From Myxococcales bacterium (GTDB taxonomy: Bacteria; Myxococcota_A; Polyangia; Haliangiales; Haliangiaceae), in contig JAEUJX010000631.1 of assembly GCA_016794545.1 (NCBI GenBank), positions 1-33,543 of the forward strand: a DNA stretch of 33,543 nucleotides, read 5' to 3'. Both the position numbers and the translations under genes were made by a program. Of the stretch, positions 11,344 to 33,543 are shown one piece after another. The first letter of the stretch is position 1. Every line of letters begins with the position of its first letter. The notes under the pieces are model-generated. The model saw only the letters and a program-made list of their open reading frames with translations, was not told the DNA's origin and searched no databases.

Positions 11344-12864
11344 TCAGAGGATCGGCGGCTGCACGCAGCTCGCGATGTCGAAGAACATGAATGCGAGCGC
11401 CTTCTCCTGCGGCGTCAGCGGCATCGCCGAGCAGCTCTGCGGGAACGGGTTGTTCGACACCGAGTCGGCGGACACGTGCATGTCGGAGAACACGACCTTG
11501 CCGCAGCGATCGCCGGCCGGTGCCTCGTTCGGCGTCGTGAACTGGAAGATCTGCGGGAACTCCGTCCCTTGCTGGTCGAGGTAGACCCAGCGCTCGGCCT
11601 TGGCGGCGTCCACCGAGCTCGCGGTGAGACGCGGCTGGGTCACGGGGATCTCACCGCGCGTCGTCGAGCCCATCACGTTCAGCATCCACGTCGCGAACGA
11701 CGCGCCCTTGGGGTTGCTCACCTCGTCGATCGTGTCGATCGCGTTGTTGAGGTTGGTGTTGGCCTCCCACTGCGCGATCGAGTTCCACACCGGCGGCGTC
11801 TGGCCCATGCCGCCGGCCTCTCCGTTGAAGTCGCCGCCGATCCAGATGTTGTGCCAGTGCGAGGCGAACACGCGCCCGCCGAGGTCGGCGTACGCCTTCA
11901 TCGCGTTCAGCGAGGTCTGCGGCTTGGTCCGCGGAGCTTGCTCGCCCTCGCACGACAGGATCACGATGTCGTACGCCTTCAGGTTGTTGACGTCGTCCCA
12001 GAACGGCGTCGCCGACGGGATCATGCCCTGCCCTCCCGCGAAGCCGGACTGGAACGCGCTGCGGCCGTTGCCGGCGTAGAGGTGGATCTTCGCCGCGTCG
12101 CCCATCTTGCCGATCTCGGAGTCCTCGATGCCGAGCTTGCGCGGGAGGCACTCGAGCGCGTCGGCGCCGCCGGTCGTGATCGCGATGCTCGGCATCGAGC
12201 CCTCGGTCTTGTTCTTCGGCAGGCGCGTCTCGGTCGCGGGCAGCGCGGTGTCCATGCACTCGCCGACCATCGGGATCGTGATCGTGCGGCGCCACTTGCC
12301 GCTCTGGATGATGAGCGGGACGTTCGCGCCCGACGGCACGTCGGTCAGCACGAAGCGGCCGGCCTCGTCGGTCTGGATGTGCGCGACCGGGTAGCCGGGC
12401 AGCGTGTCGCCGCAGCGATCGCAGATCGCACCGTCGGGCGGAGGAGCGACCGGCGTGTTCGGGATGTACACGTTGATGCCGAACAGGGGCAGCGTGCCGT
12501 TCGGCGCGTAGACCACGCCGCTGATGCTGGTCGGCGGCATGCCCTTCTTGTCGCACTGGACGATCTTGCACTCGAGGCCGACGCACTCGTCGTTGCCGAC
12601 GCACTGGCCGTCGGGCGTGCAGCGGTAGCCATCGCCGCACTCGCCGCCGCTCTGCGTGCAGAGAGCGTCGCACCTGCCGTCCTCGGTGCAGTGGTAGCCG
12701 CCGGGGCACGTGGTCGGCGCCCCCGGCGTGGGATCGCACATCGTCATGCACGCCGCCGGCGGCGGCACGACGTTGTCGCAGACGCTCTTGCCTCCCGGCC
12801 CACTTCCTCCACAGCCGATGACGGCGAACGACAGGATCGCGAATGCCAGGCGAGGGTCCCGCAT
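11344..12864 (-). CDS. Lipoprotein with Cys-rich N-region, carboxypeptidase-regulatory-like domain and ThuA/GATase-like C-part (paralogue A)
   Basis: A 506-residue lipoprotein (lipobox VIGC, C18). After a Gly/Ser linker there is a Cys-rich stretch (about 29-100) with CPGGYHCTEDGRCDALC and GDGYRCTPDGQC modules. A carboxypeptidase-D-regulatory-like/CnaB-type beta domain follows at about 110-200 (SISGVVYAPNG, DEAGRFVLTDVPSG, SGKWRRTITIP). The C-terminal half contains IHLYAGNG, AYDIVILSCEGEQ, GGRVFASHWHNIWIGG, VVFSDMHVS and LAFMFFDIASCV; the layout suggests a ThuA/class-I-glutamine-amidotransferase-like fold (inference). I recognise the family as a recurrent myxobacterial surface lipoprotein of unknown function. 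It is about 90 bases from paralogue B. Confidence 0.85.
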   Translation of the reverse strand: MRDPRLAFAILSFAVIGCGGSGPGGKSVCDNVVPPPAACMTMCDPTPGAPTTCPGGYHCTEDGRCDALCTQSGGECGDGYRCTPDGQCVGNDECVGLECKIVQCDKKGMPPTSISGVVYAPNGTLPLFGINVYIPNTPVAPPPDGAICDRCGDTLPGYPVAHIQTDEAGRFVLTDVPSGANVPLIIQSGKWRRTITIPMVGECMDTALPATETRLPKNKTEGSMPSIAITTGGADALECLPRKLGIEDSEIGKMGDAAKIHLYAGNGRSAFQSGFAGGQGMIPSATPFWDDVNNLKAYDIVILSCEGEQAPRTKPQTSLNAMKAYADLGGRVFASHWHNIWIGGDFNGEAGGMGQTPPVWNSIAQWEANTNLNNAIDTIDEVSNPKGASFATWMLNVMGSTTRGEIPVTQPRLTASSVDAAKAERWVYLDQQGTEFPQIFQFTTPNEAPAGDRCGKVVFSDMHVSADSVSNNPFPQSCSAMPLTPQEKALAFMFFDIASCVQPPIL

Positions 12865-12953: not shown

Positions 12954-14318
12954 TTACTGGATCTGGCCGACGCAGCTCGCGATGTCGAAGAAGATGAAGG
13001 CCAGGGCCTTCTCCTGGGGCGTGAGCGGCGCCGCCGAGCAGCCCAGGGGGAACGCGCGGGTCGCCCCCGCCGAGGACAGCGAGCCCGACGACACGTGCAT
13101 GTCGGAGAACACGACCTTGCCGCAGCGCTGGTCGGGCGGGAGCTCGTTCGGCGTCGTGAACTCGAGGTCCTGCACGCTGACGTGGTTGTTCGACAGCGCG
13201 GGCTCGAGATAGACGCGGCGGTCGGACTTCGTCGGATCGGCCATCGGCAGCGTGTAGCGCGCGCCCGTGATCGGCAGCTGCCCGAGCACCGTCGAGCCCA
13301 TCACGTTCATCATCCACTTCGCGAACGACACGCCCTTCGTGACGGTCTGGTCGATGCTCGCGATCGTGTTCTCCTGATCCTGCGGCGCGGCGTAGTTCCA
13401 CGTGCCGATCGCCTGCCAGTCGGGGAGGCCGTGCGAGAGGTTCCCGTTCTCGCCGCCGATCCAGATGTTGTGCCAGTGCGACATGAACACGCGCCCGCCG
13501 AGCCCGGCGTAGTCGTGGACCGCCTGCATCGCGGTCTGCGGCTTGGTCGCCGGCCGCTGGCTGCCCTCGCACGAGAACATCACGATGTCGTAGGGCATGA
13601 GGTGCGCGGTGGTGTCCCAGACGGTGGTCGCCACCGGGAACACCGCGCCACCGAGCGCCGGCGCGTAGCGATCCGTGCCGTTGCCCGCGTACAGGTGCAC
13701 GCGGCCGGTGCCCGTCGGGTTCGTGAACTCCGTGCCCTCGATGCCGAGCTTGTACGGCAAGCACTCGAGCGCATCGGCGCTGCCCGTGGTGATCGCGATC
13801 CGCGGGATGTCGCCCTCGGTCTGGTTCTTCGGCAGCCGCGTCGTCGTCGGATCGAGCGGGAGGTCCTGACACGCGGCGACGTTCGGCACCGTGAGCTGGC
13901 GCCGCCATTTTCCGACCTGGATCACGAGGGGCACGTTCGCCGTGGCCGGAACGTTCGGCAGGACGAACTGCCCCTTCTCGTCGGTGACGGTCTGGGTGTA
14001 CGCGCCGCCGGGCAGGCCGTTCGCGCAGCGATCGCAGATCGCACCGTCGGGCAGCGGGCCCGGATCCGCGATCGGCACGTAGACGTTGACCCCGTAGAGC
14101 GGCAGCGAGCCGTTCGGCGCGTTGACGGTCCCCGACAGCGTCGTCGGCGGCAGGCCCTTGTTCGCGCAGTCGACGATGTGACAGCCGAGGCCGACGCACG
14201 CGTCGAGCTCGAAGCCGGCGTCCCCCTCGAGGTCGTCGCTCTGCGGCTCGTGTCGCTTGCACGCGCCCGCACCGATCACGAGGGCGCACGCGGCAGCGAC
14301 GGACAGCAGTCGGCCCAT
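12954..14318 (-). CDS. Lipoprotein with carboxypeptidase-regulatory-like domain (paralogue B)
   Basis: A 454-residue lipoprotein, paralogous to its downstream neighbour. Signal MGRLLSVAAACALVIGAGAC has lipobox GAGAC (C20). It lacks most of the Cys-rich modules of paralogue A and goes quickly into CVGLGCHIVDCANKGLPPTT, then the regulatory-like domain (LSGTVNAPNG, DEKGQFVLPNVP, VGKWRRQLTVP). The C-part shows VHLYAGNG, YDIVMFSCEGSQ, GGRVFMSHWHNIWIGG, VVFSDMHVS and LAFIFFDIASCV, aligning block for block with paralogue A. Start ATG 14318 is supported by the signal peptide and a TAGACT hexamer 7 bases upstream. An open frame extends further into the kinase gene, but that part is a shadow. Confidence 0.85.
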   Translation of the reverse strand: MGRLLSVAAACALVIGAGACKRHEPQSDDLEGDAGFELDACVGLGCHIVDCANKGLPPTTLSGTVNAPNGSLPLYGVNVYVPIADPGPLPDGAICDRCANGLPGGAYTQTVTDEKGQFVLPNVPATANVPLVIQVGKWRRQLTVPNVAACQDLPLDPTTTRLPKNQTEGDIPRIAITTGSADALECLPYKLGIEGTEFTNPTGTGRVHLYAGNGTDRYAPALGGAVFPVATTVWDTTAHLMPYDIVMFSCEGSQRPATKPQTAMQAVHDYAGLGGRVFMSHWHNIWIGGENGNLSHGLPDWQAIGTWNYAAPQDQENTIASIDQTVTKGVSFAKWMMNVMGSTVLGQLPITGARYTLPMADPTKSDRRVYLEPALSNNHVSVQDLEFTTPNELPPDQRCGKVVFSDMHVSSGSLSSAGATRAFPLGCSAAPLTPQEKALAFIFFDIASCVGQIQ

Positions 14319-14325
14319 GATCGGA

Positions 14326-14331
14326 AGTCTA
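14326..14331 (-). promoter_or_regulatory. -10-like TAGACT before lipoprotein paralogue B
   Basis: On the minus strand TAGACT lies 7 bases before the ATG at 14318, within the 35-base gap after the Ser/Thr kinase stop. It is the same arrangement as for paralogue A. Confidence 0.38.
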
Positions 14332-14353
14332 TCAAGGTCCGCGGAGGACGGAA

Positions 14354-17300
14354 TCAACGTTTCATCTTCGCGTCGATCGCGAGCTCGCCGTTCGCGGGCC
14401 ACTCGAGATCCTGAACGTACGGCTGGTAGTCCTTGAGCCGCAGCTCGATCTTCCGGGCGGAGTCCATGTCCACGTCGCTGATCGTCTTGGGCGCGCGGCC
14501 GCGCGGCTCGCCGTTGATGTAGATCTCGGCGCCGTCGGGCGTGCTGATGATGCGCAGCTTGCCGGTGATCGGCTTCAGCAGCGCCATCACCGCGATCTCG
14601 CCGCCGGTCTTCGGCACGTCGACCTCGGCGTCGATGTACGGCTTGTGGCGCGCGAGCTCCACCTTCACCTCGTGACGCGAGCCGACCGGCACGCCCTCGA
14701 CGGTGACCGGGGTCTTCTCCGTGAGCTTCGTCCCATCCCACGTGACCTGCGCACCGGCCGGCACCGAGTCGATGCGCACCTTGCCGGTCTCCGGCGCCGT
14801 CTCCCGCGAGGTCCGGATGATGAGGAACGTCACGCCCGCCGCGACGGAGAGCGCGAGGATCGCCGCGATGATGTAGGTGAACATCCGGCGCCGCGCCGCG
14901 CCGAGCTTGTACTGCGACGGCAGCTCGTCGACCTCGAACAGCCGCATCTGCCCGGTCAGCGTCATCGCCTTCTGACCGGGCTGGAACTGATAGAGCGCGC
15001 CGGGGGTCACGTGTGGCTGCGGACCCGGCGGCTGCTGCGGATAGCCCGGCTGCTGCGGATAGCCCTGCGGCGAGGAGCCCGGCTGCTGCGGATAGCCTTG
15101 CTGCTGCGGATAGCCCTGCGGCGAGTAGCCCGGCTGCTGCGGATAGCCCTGCGGCGAGTAGCCCGGCTGCTGCGGGTAGCCCGGCTGCTGCGGATAGCCA
15201 GGCTGCTGCGGATAGCCCGGCTGCTGCGGATAGCCAGGCTGGCCGTAGCCGGGCATCACCGTCGCCATGGCCATCGGCAAGCCGGAGGCGTCGGTCGCGT
15301 AGGGCGACTGCTGGCCCGGCGTCGCGTACGGGAACTGCTGCGGCGGAGCGGGCATCGGGGCCGGCTGCGCGTGCTGCGGCATCTGCATCGGCGGCGGCGG
15401 CGTCGGCGGAGGCGGCTGCGGCTGCGGCTGCGGCTGCGACGCCATGGCCGGTGCCGGCTGCGGCTGCGGAGCGCGTGGGACCGGCATCGGCTCGTTCGAC
15501 TGCTTGTTGACGATCTGCTGCAGCACGTTCGGTTGCTGCACCACCGGCACGCCACCCTGGGGCGTGCGCTGGCTCTTGCGAGGCTTGCGCAGCTCGCTGA
15601 CCGCGGGAGCGTGGATCTTCGCCGCGAGCGCCGCGGGCGGCGGCTGGTGCTTCTTCCCGACGACCTTGGGCCTGTCCTGCCGGAAGTCGCGAGCGACCGT
15701 CGGTCCTTCCTCGTCGCCGCGCACCGCCGCATGTCCGTCGAGCGTCGGCGCGTCCTCGTCCTCTTCGTCCTCGTCCTCGCCCTCGTCCTCGACACCGGTG
15801 TCGAGGGTGTCCTCGCCGGGCGGGCGCGGGATATCGCTGACGAGCGTGGCGTCGACCGGCTCGTCGCCGTCCATCATGAACCCGCCGCCCGGCGCGCCCA
15901 TGCCGCTCGGCGCGGTGATCATCGTGCGCTCGCCGATGTTCTCGAGCTCGTCACCGCCGGCGTCGGTCTCGGTCGCGTCCCACGCGCTCGCGCTGACCTT
16001 CTTGCCCGAAGGCATGAGCAGGCCGCTCAGGTCGTCGGTGCCACCGGGGGCCGCGAAGTCGAGCTGCCGCGTCTCCTCGTTCGGGTTCTTGCGCGGCTGC
16101 GGCATCGCTTTCGCCGGCAGCGGCTTCGCGGGGGTCGGCTGCACCACGCGCGGGATCGGCATCGCCGGCGTCGGCTGCTTGCCCGCCGGCCCCGGTGCGG
16201 GTCCGCTCGGCCGGCCGATCGACGACAGCTTCGCGCCGCCCTGCCCCGGCGGCGGCCGCACCTGACCCGCGACGATCGGCGGCGGCTCGGTGTCGGCGTG
16301 AGCGCGCGTCGAGTTCGCCGGGGCGCCGCGCGGCGCGAGCTTCGCGCCGGGCTTCTTCGGCTCCGGGCGCGTGAGCTCCTCCGGCTCGCCGGGCTTCTTC
16401 AGCTCCGACGGGCGGAAGATCACCGAGTTCTCGTCGTGCAGCTCGCGCCCGTCGTGCACGAGGTCGTTGGTGTCGAGCGTGAACGTCGCGTTCGCGCCCT
16501 CGTGGATCTCGATGCTCGGGAAGTCCGCCTGCGGAGGCACGGCCTCGGGCTCGCCGACGATCTTCTTGACCATCTGGCTGACCTTCGCGGCGGTGAACAC
16601 CGGCGAGTACGTGTGGAGGAACCGCTCGAGGTCCGCCGCGAGATCGCCCGCGCTCTGATAGCGCTCGCCGGGCAGCCGCTGCAGCGCGTGCATCACGATC
16701 TTCTCGAGCTGCGGCGGGATGCCCTTGCGCAGCGTGCTCGGCGGCTTGATGTCCGCCTTGCGCGCCATGTCGAGGAGCTTGTGCAGATCCTCCTCGAGGT
16801 AGAGCATCTGCCCGACGATCATCTCGTACAGCACGATGCCCGCCGAGAAGATGTCGCTGCGGTAGTCGATCTGATCGCCCCAGGCCTGCTCGGGGCTCAT
16901 GTAGTAGTACTTGCCCTTGATCACGCCGACCGCGGTCTGGCGCGCCTTCATCGTCGCCTTCGCGATGCCGAAGTCGACGAGCTTCACCTCTCCCGAGTAG
17001 GAGACGAGCACGTTCTGCGGCGAGACATCGCGGTGCACGATCCCGAGCGGGCGCCCGGTGTGGTCCTTCTTCCGGTGCGCGTGATCGAGCGCGCTCGCGA
17101 TCTCCTTGCCGATGAACGCGCACACGTCGAGCGGCATCTCGTGATCGATCTCGGAGCCGCGGCGCAGGATCTTGTAGAGGTCCGCGCCGTCGACGTACTC
17201 CATCGTGATGTAGTACGTGTCGCCGACGCGGCCGAGGTCGAACGTCTGGGCGATGTTGCCGTGCGTGAGCTGCACGGCGATCTTCGCCTCGTCGACCAGC

Positions 17301-20939: not shown

Positions 20940-22891
20940 GGGTTGCCTCCCTGCTGCGCCTTGATGAAGTCGACACGCTCGTTCTGCCCGTCGGTCGCGC
21001 CGGCCGAGCCGAGCGGACGATCCGACCCGAGGCCGACGGCCTGGAGCTGGCCCGCCGGGACGCCCTGCGAGGCGAGGTAGTCGACGATCGCCCTGGCGCG
21101 CGCCTGCGTGGTCGTCTTGTCCTTCGCCTTCTGTGCCCGCACCGCGGCCGCGCCGGTGGCCTTCGTCCCGAGCGGGACGTGGACCTCGATGCGGATGTTG
21201 AGCTTGCGGTTCTTCAGGATCGTCGCGACCTGGTTCAGCAGCGTCTTCGCGGCCGGGGTGAGGTTGGCCGTGCCTCGCGTGAACGAGACCTGACCGCCCT
21301 TGAGATCGATCCGGTCCGCGCGCTCCTCGGGGCCGGTCGTGCCGCGGACATCCGGGCAGCCGTCGTCATCGTCGACGCCGTTGACCGTCTCCGCATCGTT
21401 GGGGCACTTGTCGCGCGCGTCCTCGAAGCCGTCGCCGTCGTTGTCCTGGTCGAGGCAGCCGTCCTCGTCCTCGAACCCGTCCTTGTCCTCGGCCTGGTCG
21501 GGGCACTTGTCGGCGGTGTCGGGGATGGCGTCGTTGTCGTTGTCATCCTCGCGGCAGCCGTCCCCGTCCTTGAACCCGTCCTTGTCCTCGGGCTCGTTCG
21601 GGCACTGGTCGTCGGCGTCGCCGATGCCGTCACCGTCGTTGTCGATGTCGGGGCAGCCGTCCTCGTCCTGGAACCCGTCCTTGTCCTCGCTGTCGTCGGC
21701 GCAGCCGTCGACCGAGTCGGGGATGCCGTCGCCGTCCTTGTCGTTGCGGCCCGGGGCCGCGGCACCCGCGGGCTGTGGGGCCCACGTGATGCCGGTCGTG
21801 AACCGGAAGTCATCGCCGCGCGCACCGATGAGACCGGTGCCGATCATGAGGTTCGCGGTGACGTCCGCGGACAGGCGCAGCATCATGCCGAGCGTGAGCA
21901 GCGTCGTCAGATCGCCCGCCTTCGCATCGCCGAAGTAGTCGGCGTCGGTCAGGGTCTTGCAGCGCTGGCCGTTGTAGCGGACGCACGAGCCGTACGTCGC
22001 GCCCTCGGGCAGCGGCAGGAACACGGTGGCCTCGAGCGCCGCCTGGGTGCGGGGCGTCAGCTCGTAGACCGCGCCGGCACCGACGACGAGCTCGCTGCCG
22101 ATGTCGAGGTACGCCTTCGCGTCGTCCGGCGACTGGCTCGGATCGACGGTGTCGTAACCCTCGAGGACCGTGCGCTTGCGGATGCGGGCGCCGACGTTGG
22201 CCACCACGCGCGTGGCCGTGATCCGGTCCTTGCGCCAGTCGAAGGCGACCTTCGGCTCGAACACGAGCCCGCGGTCGCCGAGCAGCATCTCGTCCTCGCC
22301 GAACGGCAGGAACACGGAGCCGACCGCGGTCAGCGCCATCTGCTTGTTCGACCACAGCATGTACTTCGCGCCGACGCGCGCATCGAGCGGGCCGGCGAGC
22401 CCGTCGCCGAGGTAGCTCGCCTCGTCGTTCGGGTTGGCCGACGGGTCGATGTTCGACAGCGGGCGCAGCGCGATCAGGCCGCTCGACGGCGTGGTGACCA
22501 TGCCGTTGTAGTAGCGGCCGCGCTCGCCGTAGCCGACGCCCGTCTTGGTGCGGTACGCGGCGACGTTGAAGCCGACGGCGAACTTCTCCGTGAGCGACAT
22601 GCCGAACGACAGATCGACCGTCATCAGGTAGTCGAGCATCTTGTCGCTCGAGACGTCCCCGGCGGCCGCGCCGATGCCAGGCACCGCGAGATCGAGCGGC
22701 GACTGCGCGTACCCGAGGAAGACCTTGAACGACAGGTCGCGCTTCGGCATGAGCCGCGCGCCCTCGAGGGAGAAGATGCCGGTGTTGTCGTACGACAGCC
22801 GGAACAGCTCGCTGTCGACGCCCGCGGTTGGATCGGCCGAAGCCGTGGCGACGCTGCCCACCAGCAGCGCCGAGATGATCGTTGTTCTCAC
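20936..22891 (-). CDS. OmpA-like outer-membrane protein with TSP3 calcium-type repeats
   Basis: A 651-residue protein. The N-terminal part after the signal peptide (MRTTIISALLVGSVATASA) is a beta-rich barrel-like domain of about 350 residues. It is followed by four thrombospondin-type-3-like units rich in Asp (DKDGDGIPD, DNDGDGIGD, and so on, each ending in Cys-Pro or similar), and a C-terminal OmpA-like domain (about 560-648: FTRGTANLTPAAKTLL, QARARAIVDYLASQGV, VGLGSDRPL). The Asp of the usual HTD motif that binds peptidoglycan is replaced by VPLG, while the Arg of the second motif remains. The GTG at 22891 overlaps the upstream stop (GTGA); a GTG at 22900 is also in frame but would spoil the match of the signal peptide. 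Confidence 0.9.
   Translation of the reverse strand: MRTTIISALLVGSVATASADPTAGVDSELFRLSYDNTGIFSLEGARLMPKRDLSFKVFLGYAQSPLDLAVPGIGAAAGDVSSDKMLDYLMTVDLSFGMSLTEKFAVGFNVAAYRTKTGVGYGERGRYYNGMVTTPSSGLIALRPLSNIDPSANPNDEASYLGDGLAGPLDARVGAKYMLWSNKQMALTAVGSVFLPFGEDEMLLGDRGLVFEPKVAFDWRKDRITATRVVANVGARIRKRTVLEGYDTVDPSQSPDDAKAYLDIGSELVVGAGAVYELTPRTQAALEATVFLPLPEGATYGSCVRYNGQRCKTLTDADYFGDAKAGDLTTLLTLGMMLRLSADVTANLMIGTGLIGARGDDFRFTTGITWAPQPAGAAAPGRNDKDGDGIPDSVDGCADDSEDKDGFQDEDGCPDIDNDGDGIGDADDQCPNEPEDKDGFKDGDGCREDDNDNDAIPDTADKCPDQAEDKDGFEDEDGCLDQDNDGDGFEDARDKCPNDAETVNGVDDDDGCPDVRGTTGPEERADRIDLKGGQVSFTRGTANLTPAAKTLLNQVATILKNRKLNIRIEVHVPLGTKATGAAAVRAQKAKDKTTTQARARAIVDYLASQGVPAGQLQAVGLGSDRPLGSAGATDGQNERVDFIKAQQGGNP
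21350..21745 (-). repeat. Four TSP3-type Asp-rich repeats
   Basis: Four successive units of about 32-33 codons encode the pattern D-x-D-x-D-G-x-x-D-x-x-D-x-C followed by EDKDGFxDxDGC. These are predicted calcium-binding stalk repeats between the barrel and the OmpA-like domain. DNA copies are clearly similar. Confidence 0.8.
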
Positions 22892-29625: not shown

Positions 29626-30309
29626 ATGGCGTCGGTCCTGATCGTCGATGACGATGCCCACATCCGCGAGGTCGCGCGGTTCGCGCTCGCGAAGGCGGGA
29701 CACGCCGTCGAGCTCGCGGCCGACGGCGCGCACGCGTACGAGCGGGTGCTCCGCGGCGGCGTCGACCTGCTCGTGCTCGACATCCTGATGCCCGAGCTCG
29801 ACGGCCTCGCGCTGTGCCGGCGGCTGCGCGCGCACGGCCGCACGCCGATCGTGTTCCTGTCGTCGCGCACCGAGGAGGCCGACCGCGTGCTCGGCCTCGA
29901 CCTCGGCGCGGACGACTACGTGACCAAGCCGTTCTCGCCGCGCGAGCTGGTCGCGCGCGTCGCGGCGGTGCTCCGGCGCACCCACGATGCGGCCGAGGTC
30001 ACCGCGCCGCGGCCGGTGCTCGCGATCGGCGAGGTCGAGATCGATCGCGACCGCCACGAGGTGCGCGTCGCCGGCGCCCCGCTGACGGTGACCGCGACGG
30101 AGCTCCGCCTGCTCGCGACGCTCGCGCAGCACCGCGGCCGCGTGCTGTCGCGCGGCCAGCTGATCGCCACCGTGTACGGGGGCGACCACCACCTCAGCGA
30201 GCGCACGATCGACACGCACGTGCGGAACCTGCGCGCGAAGCTCGCCGGGGCCGGGGGCGGAGAGCTCGTGATCGAGACGGTCCATGGCGTCGGCTATCGC
30301 TGCGGTTAG
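29626..30309 (+). CDS. OmpR/PhoB-type response regulator
   Basis: A 227-residue response regulator. The receiver (1-120) has acidic residues VDDD (7-10), phosphoacceptor D52 (LVLDILMPELDG), SS (79-80) and K101 (KPFSPRELVARV). The winged-helix DNA-binding domain (about 130-225) has the typical VTATELRLLATLAQHRGRVLSRGQL and RTIDTHVRNLRAKL, GVGYR end. It overlaps the following kinase gene by 26 bases. It probably regulates its own locus or neighbouring surface genes. The sequence upstream of the start lacks a strong Shine-Dalgarno. Confidence 0.97.
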   Translation: MASVLIVDDDAHIREVARFALAKAGHAVELAADGAHAYERVLRGGVDLLVLDILMPELDGLALCRRLRAHGRTPIVFLSSRTEEADRVLGLDLGADDYVTKPFSPRELVARVAAVLRRTHDAAEVTAPRPVLAIGEVEIDRDRHEVRVAGAPLTVTATELRLLATLAQHRGRVLSRGQLIATVYGGDHHLSERTIDTHVRNLRAKLAGAGGGELVIETVHGVGYRCG

Positions 30310-31738
30310 GCGCGGTCTCGCGCACCTCGCGCGGATCCGCTACCGCCTGCTCCTGATCAACCTGATCGCGTGCGCGGTGCCGCTCGTCGGCATCTCGTTC
30401 GCGCGCATGCACGAGGAGCAGCTGCTCGCCGCGCTCGAGGCCGACATGATCCACCAGGCCCAGCTCGTGCGCGCGTTCGGCGTGGCCGCCCCGGAGTCCG
30501 CGCTGGTCACGGCGGCCCGGGACACGCGCACGCGGATCCGGATCCTCGACCCGCGCGGCAGCGTGCGCGCCGACTCGCACCGCGGTGGGCCTCCCGAGGG
30601 CGCCGAGCGCCCCGTGCCGAGGTTCCTCGACGACGACTCGCCGACGCACGACGCGGAGGTGCCGCGACCGGTCGACCTCGCGTCCCGCAGCGAGGTGAAG
30701 GCCGCGCTCGCCGGCCGCTACGGCTCGGCGACGCGGCTGTGGGACAACCAGGACCGCGTCTATCTGTTCTCCGCGCTGCCGATCCTCGACGCGGCGGGCG
30801 CGGTCTCGGGCGTCGTCTACGTCACGCGCTCGACGCACGACGTGAAGCTGCAGCTCTACCGGCTGCGCACCTGGCTGGTGCGCGTGCTCGTGGTCGCGTG
30901 CGTCACGACCGCACTGCTCACGCTCCTGCTCGCGACCACGATCGCGCGTCCGCTCGGCCGCCTGACCCGGCGCGCGCAGCGGATCGCGGCGCGCCAGCCG
31001 GTCGAGACCACGGACGCGCTGACCAGGCGCTCCGACGAGATCGGCCAGCTCGCGCGCGCCGTCGACGCGATGACCGACGAGCTCGAGCGCCGTGCCCGCG
31101 ACGCGCGCACACTCGCCGCCGACATCTCGCACGAATTCAAGACGCCGCTCACCGGGATCCGCGGCGCGGCCGAGCTGCTGCGCGACGGCGCGGCCGACGA
31201 TCCGGCCGCGCGCGAGCAGTTCCTCGCGATGATCGTCGAGGACACGGCGCGGCTCGATCGTCTGGTGTCCCGGCTGCTCGAGCTCGCGCGCGTCGAGGAC
31301 GATCGCGGCGCGGCGCTGCCGGTCGAGGTCGGCGAGCTCGCGCGCGCGTGTGCCGCACGCCCGTGGCCGGTGGCGGTCGTGGTCGCGTGCACCGGCGACA
31401 CGGTCATCGCGGGGCGCGGGGCCGCCCTCGCCTCGGCGATCGATAACCTCGTCGCGAACGCGACGCAGTTCGCGGAGCCCGACACCGCGGTGCACGTCGT
31501 CGTCGAGGGGGTCGCCGGCGGCGTGCGCGTGATCGTGGCGAACCACGGTCCGGCGCTGTCACCGGCGGCGCGCGCCAAGGTGTGGGACCGGTTCTACTCG
31601 ACGCGCGTCGCCTCGGGCGGCAGCGGTCTCGGTCTGGCGATCGTACGGTCCGTCGCGATCGCGCACGGTGGCTCGGTCGGCGTCGACTGCGCAGATGGCA
31701 TCACCGCGTTCTGGTTCGAGGCGCGATCCGCGCGGTAA
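30284..31738 (+). CDS. Membrane sensor histidine kinase, partner of the adjacent regulator
   Basis: A 484-residue classical sensor kinase. TM1 is about 20-40 (YRLLLINLIACAVPLVGISFA), a periplasmic sensor region about 45-195 (HEEQLLAALEADMIHQAQLV, VYLFSALPILDAAGAV), TM2 about 200-225, HAMP (IARPLGRLTRRAQRIA), then the H-box DISHEFKTPLTGIRGA (H283), N-box-like IDNLVANATQFA, and G2 GGSGLGLAIVRSVA. It resembles ChvG/CreC-type kinases in having a stimulus-sensing region after TM1. The G1 motif is weak (VANHGPALSP in place of DxGxG), so ATP binding may be less canonical. The ATG overlaps the regulator stop region. Confidence 0.94.
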   Translation: MASAIAAVRRGLAHLARIRYRLLLINLIACAVPLVGISFARMHEEQLLAALEADMIHQAQLVRAFGVAAPESALVTAARDTRTRIRILDPRGSVRADSHRGGPPEGAERPVPRFLDDDSPTHDAEVPRPVDLASRSEVKAALAGRYGSATRLWDNQDRVYLFSALPILDAAGAVSGVVYVTRSTHDVKLQLYRLRTWLVRVLVVACVTTALLTLLLATTIARPLGRLTRRAQRIAARQPVETTDALTRRSDEIGQLARAVDAMTDELERRARDARTLAADISHEFKTPLTGIRGAAELLRDGAADDPAAREQFLAMIVEDTARLDRLVSRLLELARVEDDRGAALPVEVGELARACAARPWPVAVVVACTGDTVIAGRGAALASAIDNLVANATQFAEPDTAVHVVVEGVAGGVRVIVANHGPALSPAARAKVWDRFYSTRVASGGSGLGLAIVRSVAIAHGGSVGVDCADGITAFWFEARSAR

Positions 31739-31748: not shown

Positions 31749-32741
31749 ATGTCGATCCAGCGGGGTGTCCTGGTATCCGTGGCTTTCTGTCTTGGTCTGC
31801 TCGCGCTCGCGGGCTGCCCCCCACAGCCACCGGGCGGTGGGCGAGGCGGTGGTGGCGGCGGCGCCGGCATCAACCCGGGCGCCTGCGGGACGATCGACAC
31901 GAACCCGGTCGGCCGCAAGCTGCACGCGTTCCTCGTCGCGTCGGCCGAGCTCGACCGCGCGTCGATCGAGCTCGAGGGGACCGTGCACCGCGCGTGCGGG
32001 AAGATGGCGACCATCCTCGGCATCCCCGCGACGGGAGACACGAAGGACCTGTGCAACCGCACCGCGATCGCGCTGCGCGACAACCTCCAGGTCTCGGTGA
32101 AGACCGAGTCGCGCCTCGTCACGCGCACCGTCCCGCCGGTCTGCACGACGGACATCAGCTTCACCGCGGGCCTCGTCGCCGAGTGCGAGGCGCGCGCGTC
32201 GGCCGACATCGACGTGCGCTGCACCGGTCGCTGCTCCGGAACCTGCAACGGCACGTGCAGCGGCACGATGTCGGGTGGCCAGTGCGACGGCACCTGCCAG
32301 GGCCGCTGCTCGGGCAGCTGCAACGGCTACGCCGACGTGCAGGCGTCCGCCGAGTGCAAGGCGTCCGCCGAGGTCCGCGCGAACCTCAAGACCACGTGCA
32401 CCGAGCCGAAGGTCGAGGTCGTGCGCGAGAACGTCACCGTCGTCGACACCACCCAGTTCGATCGCGCGATCCAGGCGATCAACGAGGGCCTGCCCACGCT
32501 GATGGTCGCGACCGCGAAGCTCGAGCTCGCGGGCAAGGCGCTCGTCAACTGGGTCGCGACCGGCGCGTCGCTGCTCAGGTCCTCGGGCGAGCTCGTCGCG
32601 CAGCTCGGCGAGAAGGGCGTGTGCGTCGGCGGCCAGCTCGCGGCGGTGGTCGCGGCCTCGGCGAACATCCAGGCGCGCTTCTCGGTCTCGATCGAGGTCT
32701 CGGCACAGGTCTCCGCCTCCGCCGGCGCCGGCGGCCGCTAG
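31749..32741 (+). CDS. Lipoprotein with short Cys/Gly (CxGxC) repeat segment
   Basis: A 330-residue lipoprotein, lipobox LAGC (C23), followed by a Pro/Gly linker. A conserved-looking domain at about 45-150 carries scattered Cys (GACGTIDTNPVGRKLHAFL, RACGKMATILG). A repetitive region (about 155-195) encodes CTGRCSGTCNGTCSG, CDGTCQGRCSGSCNG and similar. A C-terminal alpha-helical part (about 225-325) follows, with IQAINEGLPTLMVATAKLELAG and an Ala/Ser-rich end. This CxGxC-type family is recalled as frequent in myxobacterial genomes but without known function. The in-frame start at 31668 is rejected since it is inside the kinase gene. It follows the kinase by 10 bases. Confidence 0.78.
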   Translation: MSIQRGVLVSVAFCLGLLALAGCPPQPPGGGRGGGGGGAGINPGACGTIDTNPVGRKLHAFLVASAELDRASIELEGTVHRACGKMATILGIPATGDTKDLCNRTAIALRDNLQVSVKTESRLVTRTVPPVCTTDISFTAGLVAECEARASADIDVRCTGRCSGTCNGTCSGTMSGGQCDGTCQGRCSGSCNGYADVQASAECKASAEVRANLKTTCTEPKVEVVRENVTVVDTTQFDRAIQAINEGLPTLMVATAKLELAGKALVNWVATGASLLRSSGELVAQLGEKGVCVGGQLAAVVAASANIQARFSVSIEVSAQVSASAGAGGR

Positions 32742-32785: not shown

Positions 32786-33543
32786 ATGGAAAAGCTCCTC
32801 CTGGCGTTCGTGTTGGTGTGCGCCGCCGCGTGCGGCGGTGACGACGGAGACGGCGGAGCCTGCGCGATCGGCGCGCTCGGCTGCGCCTGCACCGCGGGCG
32901 GCGGCTGCGATCAGGGCCTCACCTGCAACACGGCCATGGGCCGCTGCGAGGTCACGGGCGGCTGCGCCTGCGACTCCTCGTCGACCTGCCAGGCGTCGTG
33001 CGCCTGCGATCCGGACTGCGGCGGCGGCGGGTGCTCGTGCGACACGTCGAGCGGCTGCGAGACCGGCTGCGCCTGCGATCCCGACTGCGGCGGCGGTGGT
33101 GGCGGGATGAACCGCACGATCTGCACGACCGGCAACGCGACCTCGTGCACCGACACCCAGGAGTCGTGGACCGGCGGCCAGTGCTGCGTGATGGGCGTCT
33201 CGGCGTGTGTCGCGGGCAACGCGACCTCGTGCACCGACACCAAGGAGCACTGGACCGGCGGGCAGTGCTGCGTCGAGGATGCCGGCGTGTGCACGTCGGG
33301 CAACGCGACCTCGTGCACCGACACCAAGGAGCACTGGACCGGCGGCGAGTGCTGCGTCGAGGCCGTCGCCGTCTGCGTCGCCGGCAACGCGACGTCCTGC
33401 ACCGACACCAAGGAGCACTGGACCGGCGGCGAGTGCTGCGTCGAGGGCGTCTCCCAGTGCGCCGCGGGCAACGCGACCTCGTGCACCGACACCAAGGAGC
33501 ACTGGACCGGCGGCGAGTGCTGCGTCGAGGCCGTGCAGCACTG
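32786..33543 (+). CDS. Cys-rich lipoprotein with tandem 28-residue repeats, C-terminus cut by window edge
   Basis: At least 252 residues are visible. Signal sequence MEKLLLAFVLVCAAAC (lipidated C16) is followed by an acidic Gly linker (GGDDGDGG). A Cys-rich region (about 26-106) includes two copies of a CACDPDCGGGG motif. From residue 113 a strict 28-residue module repeats five times up to the edge, each of the form C-x7-C-x11-CC-x6 with core GNATSCTDTKEHWTGG. Four Cys per module suggest disulfides in an extracellular, rigid rod-like protein. No named family is recognised. The protein may continue for several more repeats beyond the window. The long open frame on the opposite strand is a shadow. 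Confidence 0.85.
   Translation, partial: MEKLLLAFVLVCAAACGGDDGDGGACAIGALGCACTAGGGCDQGLTCNTAMGRCEVTGGCACDSSSTCQASCACDPDCGGGGCSCDTSSGCETGCACDPDCGGGGGGMNRTICTTGNATSCTDTQESWTGGQCCVMGVSACVAGNATSCTDTKEHWTGGQCCVEDAGVCTSGNATSCTDTKEHWTGGECCVEAVAVCVAGNATSCTDTKEHWTGGECCVEGVSQCAAGNATSCTDTKEHWTGGECCVEAVQH
33122..33541 (+). repeat. Five tandem 84-bp repeats (28 codons each)
   Basis: Units start at 33122, 33206, 33290, 33374 and 33458. Within each, a core of about 60 bases is almost identical at DNA level, including silent positions; the last ~18 bases encoding the linker to the next Cys vary. This indicates recent unit duplication or conversion. The array reaches the window edge, so its true copy number is unknown. 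Confidence 0.93.

What the first reader, a model, noticed from the sequence alone, without database searches (positions are those of the whole stretch)
32786..33543. Surface lipoprotein made of nearly identical 28-residue, four-cysteine modules
Seen: five successive 84-bp units with the strict spacing C-x7-C-x11-CC-x6 and near-identical DNA, preceded by two CACDPDCGGGG motifs and a lipobox. Silent sites are conserved too, so the array is young. Inferred: an exported, disulfide-stabilised rod or adhesin whose length may change by slippage. Such modules could be a previously undescribed repeat family; I cannot match them to a named domain.
Basis: partly seen in the sequence, partly recalled or inferred. 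Interest (0 to 1): 0.66.

Follow-up and report, generated by a model that had tools for sequence, protein, structure and literature searches.

The report
Uncatalogued four-cysteine surface lipoprotein repeat
A bacterium makes a probably surface-anchored protein built from near-identical 28-residue cysteine-locked beads; relatives carry the same kind of bead array, and within each array one short stretch of every bead is kept the same while it differs from species to species, which suggests that the beads act together.

Summary
ORF 32786-33541 starts with a lipoprotein signal, then a small Cys-rich head, two CACDPDCGGGG stretches and five C-x7-C-x11-CC-x6 units of 84 bp. The contig ends inside the array, so five is a minimum. 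It is not an assembly artefact. A complete orthologue in a second species, behind the same response regulator, kinase and lipoprotein genes, has seven units and stops one residue after the last CC. Similar arrays (3-8 units) occur in about 20 of 318 genomes of the class, including single-contig genomes. No unit reaches any Pfam, NCBIfam or PDB threshold. A three-unit model (pLDDT 81) shows a beta-hairpin per unit, with no PDB fold match. 'Young array' is only partly right: this array has few silent differences, but others are silently diverged. The new point is that residues 5-8 and 10-11 of each unit are uniform within an array (92% identical) yet differ between arrays (22%). Silent divergence there equals that of freely varying positions (0.40 versus 0.41), while replacement divergence is seven-fold lower. 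Selection therefore keeps the units alike. Most likely it is an outer-membrane disulfide-bonded bead chain presenting one repeated loop for multivalent or unit-to-unit contact. The function is inferred.

The parts
32786..32833 (+). signal peptide with lipobox; lipidated Cys16, +2 Gly, +7 Asp
   Evidence: translation; orthologue L003 has LGAC at the same place; 19 of 22 family members have a lipobox pattern
32861..32950 (+). N-terminal Cys-rich head (CAIGALGCACTAGGGCDQGLTCNTAMGRCE)
   Evidence: N-terminal part about 71% identical to the orthologue
32963..33109 (+). two Cys-rich CxCDPDC stretches with Gly linkers
   Evidence: long arrays of similar stretches in L004-L007
33110..33543 (+). array of at least five 84-bp units C-x7-C-x11-CC-x6, cut by the contig end
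33122..33205 (+). unit 1 (CTTGNATSCTDTQESWTGGQCCVMGVSA); positional orthologue of unit 1 in L003 (90% DNA identity)
33206..33289 (+). unit 2
33290..33373 (+). unit 3
33374..33457 (+). unit 4
33458..33541 (+). unit 5; the following TG (33542-33543) fits Cys1 of a sixth unit
31749..32741 (+). upstream lipoprotein with CxGxCxGxC stretch; syntenic neighbour in L003 but unlinked from the array in G007
30284..31738 (+). sensor histidine kinase (HAMP, HisKA, HATPase_c), conserved neighbour in L003 (83%)
29626..30309 (+). response regulator (Response_reg, Trans_reg_C), conserved neighbour in L003 (84%)

Best explanation
The gene encodes an outer-membrane lipoprotein whose C-terminal part is a chain of small disulfide-locked beads. 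Each 28-residue bead has a loop (residues 5-8, between Cys1 and Cys2) and a WTG beta-hairpin ending in CC; in complete relatives the chain ends in a divergent cap bead and the protein stops within 1-4 residues. The same loop is repeated in every bead of one protein and differs between species. I propose that the chain presents this loop many times, either to a repeated partner (a glycan, a surface, or the same protein on a neighbour) or to the next bead, so all beads of one chain must match. Shown: anatomy, family, variable copy number, and array-specific uniformity kept at protein level. Predicted: lipidation and hairpin fold. Inferred: outer-membrane location (from M. xanthus rules), disulfides, multivalent or homotypic contact.
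For: Anatomy. Complete seven-unit orthologue L003 with conserved response regulator-kinase-lipoprotein context. About 20 of 318 genomes of the class carry arrays, three of them single-contig genomes of one genus. All 20 complete arrays end 1-4 residues after the last CC. Lipobox pattern in 19 of 22; +2 is not Lys and +7 is not Ala in the window protein, which by M. xanthus rules fits outer-membrane rather than inner-membrane or matrix sorting (PMC3222651). Residues 5-8 and 10-11: 92% identical within, 22% between arrays; other variable positions 40% and 21%. Positions chosen on one set of arrays hold on the other (10 of 10, 6 of 6). Motif pS 0.397 and pN 0.053 against 0.412 and 0.371 at other variable positions; between related arrays motif pN is 0.16-0.46. 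G566 units 1 and 2 encode the same TANYCYG with nearly all codons different. Three-unit model pLDDT 80.6, pTM 0.63.
Against: No functional data and no partner gene: outside the G000-G005 pair the gene neighbourhoods differ. The five-unit model is poor (pLDDT 55), so how beads are arranged is unknown. In the window array itself silent sites are also unusually alike, so recent duplication or conversion contributes here. The motif positions were first picked from the same data (cross-validated).
Confidence: 0.5

Rival explanations
1. Pure spacer or stalk: the chain only gives length on the surface, and loop uniformity reflects bead-to-bead packing with no external ligand.
For: Cys-rich tandem repeats are proposed as a rigid stalk in TraA (PMC3325183); heads differ between lineages while the array stays C-terminal.
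Against: The array is at the free C-terminal end and the head is next to the lipid anchor, so it would be a stalk with nothing on its tip; the loop changes between close relatives.
Confidence: 0.25
2. Neutral concerted evolution: slippage or gene conversion copies units over each other and uniformity has no functional meaning.
For: In the window, G005, G002, G397, G567, G568 and G430 arrays silent identity exceeds codon-usage expectation; copy number varies; nearest neighbour of internal units is in the same array in 77% against about 4% for shuffled labels.
Against: Uniformity is concentrated at six positions while linker and other positions vary, and silent divergence is the same at both. 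Conversion would homogenise all positions alike.
Confidence: 0.12
3. Matrix-building or repetitive-surface-binding protein (mineral, ice, cell-wall polymer), where aligned Thr/Ser/Asn loops form a flat regular face.
For: Loops are mostly T, S, N, G, A, Y; weak sub-threshold matches to the grass antifreeze beta roll in four arrays (13.2, 15.5, 11.8, 15.9 bits; cut-off 30); di-Cys repeats of similar length in coral galaxins (PMC2726143).
Against: All matches are far below cut-off and probably compositional; some arrays have other loops (YSFD, KEIP, TEAS); Galaxin_repeat best score 14.3 against cut-off 28.
Confidence: 0.1
4. Assembly artefact of a repeat-prone contig end.
For: The contig ends inside the array, as does that of G002.
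Against: Complete arrays in independent assemblies including single-contig genomes.
Confidence: 0.01

Closest known systems
TraA Cys-rich tandem repeats (TIGR04201) of myxobacteria
   Same: Exported, cysteine-rich tandem repeats in Myxococcota surface proteins, proposed as a stalk (PMC3325183)
   Different: No TIGR04201 hit; no PA14 domain; N-terminal lipid anchor, and the protein ends right after the last CC with no C-terminal sorting tag
Galaxin_repeat (PF24748)
   Same: About 30-residue secreted tandem repeats with di-cysteine motifs and relaxed sequence apart from Cys arrangement
   Different: Best family member scores 14.3 bits against cut-off 28, the window protein none
Myxococcota CxCDPDC and CxxGLxC Cys-rich stretches
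   Same: Present in the head of the window protein and, as arrays, in L004-L007
   Different: Different spacing; no CC; no WTG
iRhom homology domain of inactive rhomboids
   Same: Short stretch with TG-x2-CC-x6-C-x7-C spacing
   Different: E-value 5.3 in the PDB search and 7.9% hhalign probability: chance level; no tandem array

Membership tests
Bacterial lipoprotein | N-terminal signal peptide ending in a lipobox Cys | tested here: met
   Pattern and hydropathy only: AAAC in the window, LGAC in L003, 19 of 22 family members. No dedicated signal-peptide predictor available
TraA Cys-rich repeat TIGR04201 | Match to the NCBIfam model | tested here: not met
TraA Cys-rich repeat TIGR04201 | PA14 domain and C-terminal sorting motif in the same protein | tested here: not met
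   No PA14 in Pfam scans; proteins stop 1-4 residues after the last CC
Galaxin_repeat PF24748 | Score above 28 bits | tested here: not met
   No hit for window protein, 12.1-14.3 bits for the G007 member
Grass antifreeze beta roll PF21300 | Score above 30 bits | tested here: not met
   11.8-15.9 bits in four arrays
Any solved fold | Foldseek match to the three-unit model | tested here: not met
   0 matches at E<=10 in the PDB; viral library only chance matches; small modules are hard for this method
New module family C-x7-C-x11-CC (WTG) | C-x2-G-x4-C-x(5,7)-W-T-G-x2-CC in tandem at the protein C-terminus | tested here: met
New module family C-x7-C-x11-CC (WTG) | Disulfide pairing of the four cysteines | not testable with these tools
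   needs the purified protein

The most novel reading that the evidence does not exclude
A class-wide family of surface lipoproteins in which every bead of a chain carries the same species-specific recognition loop, so the chain acts as a multivalent identity tag or homotypic adhesin whose specificity changes in all beads together.
Probability: 0.2. Interest if true: 0.75.

Novelty: new variant of a known kind. Interest (0 to 1): 0.48.

Why it matters
It defines an uncatalogued extracellular repeat family in Myxococcota, and it separates two usually confounded causes of repeat uniformity: at six positions the units are kept alike by selection on the protein although silent sites have drifted. 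That makes a direct prediction (the loop acts the same way in every unit) that can be tested with one purified protein.

Tried and rejected
Pfam, NCBIfam, PDB sequence, PDB fold and viral fold searches: no match above threshold. Galaxin, antifreeze beta roll and iRhom resemblances: below cut-off or chance. Plasmid, phage and viral-contig searches with the window or L003 array: nothing. The C238 DNA match in the same genome is an unrelated gene. Two marginal genome hits (G293, G577) have no real unit. A shared operon: rejected, since the conserved upstream lipoprotein is widespread and unlinked from the array in G007. Rusticalin-type repeats (PMC6339383, PMC7379824): considered from the abstracts only, no sequence test. 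The five-unit structure model was discarded for low confidence.

Full report
1. What is there. The window is the complete contig C751 (33,543 bases) of an 8.5 Mb, 780-contig genome. The relatives found carry titles such as Deltaproteobacteria, Polyangia or Myxococcota MAGs, so the organism is inferred to belong to Myxococcota. ORF 32786-33541 runs off the end. It has a signal sequence with lipobox Cys16, a Cys-rich head, two CACDPDCGGGG stretches and five 84-bp units with strict C-x7-C-x11-CC-x6 spacing. The array is the strongest tandem repeat of the window (score 587). The final bases TG fit Cys1 of a sixth unit.

2. Not an artefact, and not only a young array. A complete orthologue, L003:7061-7972 (73% identical), has seven units, stops one residue after the last CC, and lies behind the same response regulator, histidine kinase and lipoprotein genes (84%, 83% and 69% identical). 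Unit 1 is a positional orthologue (90% DNA identity; QESW and VMGVS kept). Four-fold sites within the L003 array are 67.8% identical, like the flanking genes between the species (57-70%); within the window array they are 80%, and silent identity is above codon-usage expectation. So the window array has been duplicated or homogenised more recently, but the family is old.

3. The family. Profiles of paired units found arrays in six genomes of the same genus and in 21 of 318 genomes of the class at E<=0.001, of which one (G577) is not a real unit. They include three single-contig genomes of one genus with 4, 6 and 6 units. Complete arrays have 3 to 8 units. All 20 end 1-4 residues after the last CC. 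A lipobox pattern was found in 19 of 22. Heads differ between lineages. Gene surroundings differ too: beside an ORF that looks like ribosomal protein S2 in G002 (identified by eye), and with flanks that do not align in G567 and G568 although the genes are 86% identical. The gene therefore acts alone or with partners encoded elsewhere.

4. Array-specific uniformity. Over 93 units with a 22-residue core in 21 arrays, the nearest neighbour of an internal unit is in its own array in 77% (shuffled labels: mean 4%, maximum 12%); cap units behave differently (18%) and often resemble caps of other arrays. Residues 5-8 and 10-11 are 92% identical within and 22% between arrays, other variable positions 40% and 21%. 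Positions chosen on one set of arrays hold in the other (10 of 10 and 6 of 6 arrays). Motif codons have drifted silently as much as the others (pS 0.397 and 0.412), but replacements are seven-fold fewer (pN 0.053 and 0.371); motif pN is below variable pN in all 16 arrays. Between related arrays motif pN is 0.16-0.46. In G566, units 1 and 2 encode the same TANYCYG with nearly all codons different. Uniformity is therefore maintained on the protein, not only by recent DNA copying. Caveats: the positions were first picked from these data, pairs within an array are not independent, and arrays are few.

5. Structure and location. Five units modelled poorly (pLDDT 55); three units with eight aligned registers gave pLDDT 80.6 and pTM 0.63: in the first two units a strand around Cys1 and a short helical turn in the loop, and in all three a hairpin around HWT-GG-xCC. 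No PDB fold matches. Disulfide pairing and bead packing are unknown. By M. xanthus sorting rules (PMC3222651: +2 Lys inner membrane, +7 Ala matrix) the mature start CGGDDGD points to the outer membrane; whether it faces outwards is inferred.

6. Mechanism. Most likely a disulfide-locked bead chain on the cell surface that presents one loop many times, for a multivalent ligand or bead-to-bead contact (0.5 together with anatomy). A bare stalk, neutral homogenisation and a mineral or ice face are the rivals.

7. Known relatives. No curated model is met: TIGR04201, Galaxin_repeat, the antifreeze beta roll and all PDB sequences fail their thresholds. Tandem Cys-rich repeats as surface stalks are a known kind (PMC3325183), so this is a new variant of a known kind. 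Eukaryote proteins and other phyla could not be searched with a profile here, so novelty is limited to the libraries used.

Noticed in passing
window 31749-32741: Lipoprotein with a CxGxCxGxC stretch and no Pfam match, homologues in 33 of 59 sampled genomes of the class; sub-threshold match (14.2 of 20 bits) to TIGR04114 Cys-rich repeat.
   Followed up: partly
window 11344-12864 and 12954-14741, minus strand: Two adjacent Cys-containing ORFs, 54% identical over 419 residues: a tandem gene duplication, no Pfam match above threshold for the first.
   Followed up: no
L007:2594-3298: Protein made almost wholly of CxCDxSxxCxxxCxCDxDC repeats (57 Cys in 235 residues), a second Cys-rich array related to the head of the window protein, without a Pfam match above threshold.
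   Followed up: no
L048 (G009:C354:4794-5207): A Galaxin_repeat match above the curated cut-off (35.8 bits against 28) in a genome of the same genus.
   Followed up: no
L091:3304-4881, L086, L087: Some arrays alternate two unit types, a higher-order period of 56 residues, suggesting duplication by pairs of units.
   Followed up: partly
window 33110-33541 against L003:7385-7816: Four-fold sites of the array are more alike between the two species (86%, n=44) than those of the flanking genes (57-70%); small sample, unexplained.
   Followed up: no
window 21389-21742: 99-bp tandem repeat, 3.6 copies.
   Followed up: no
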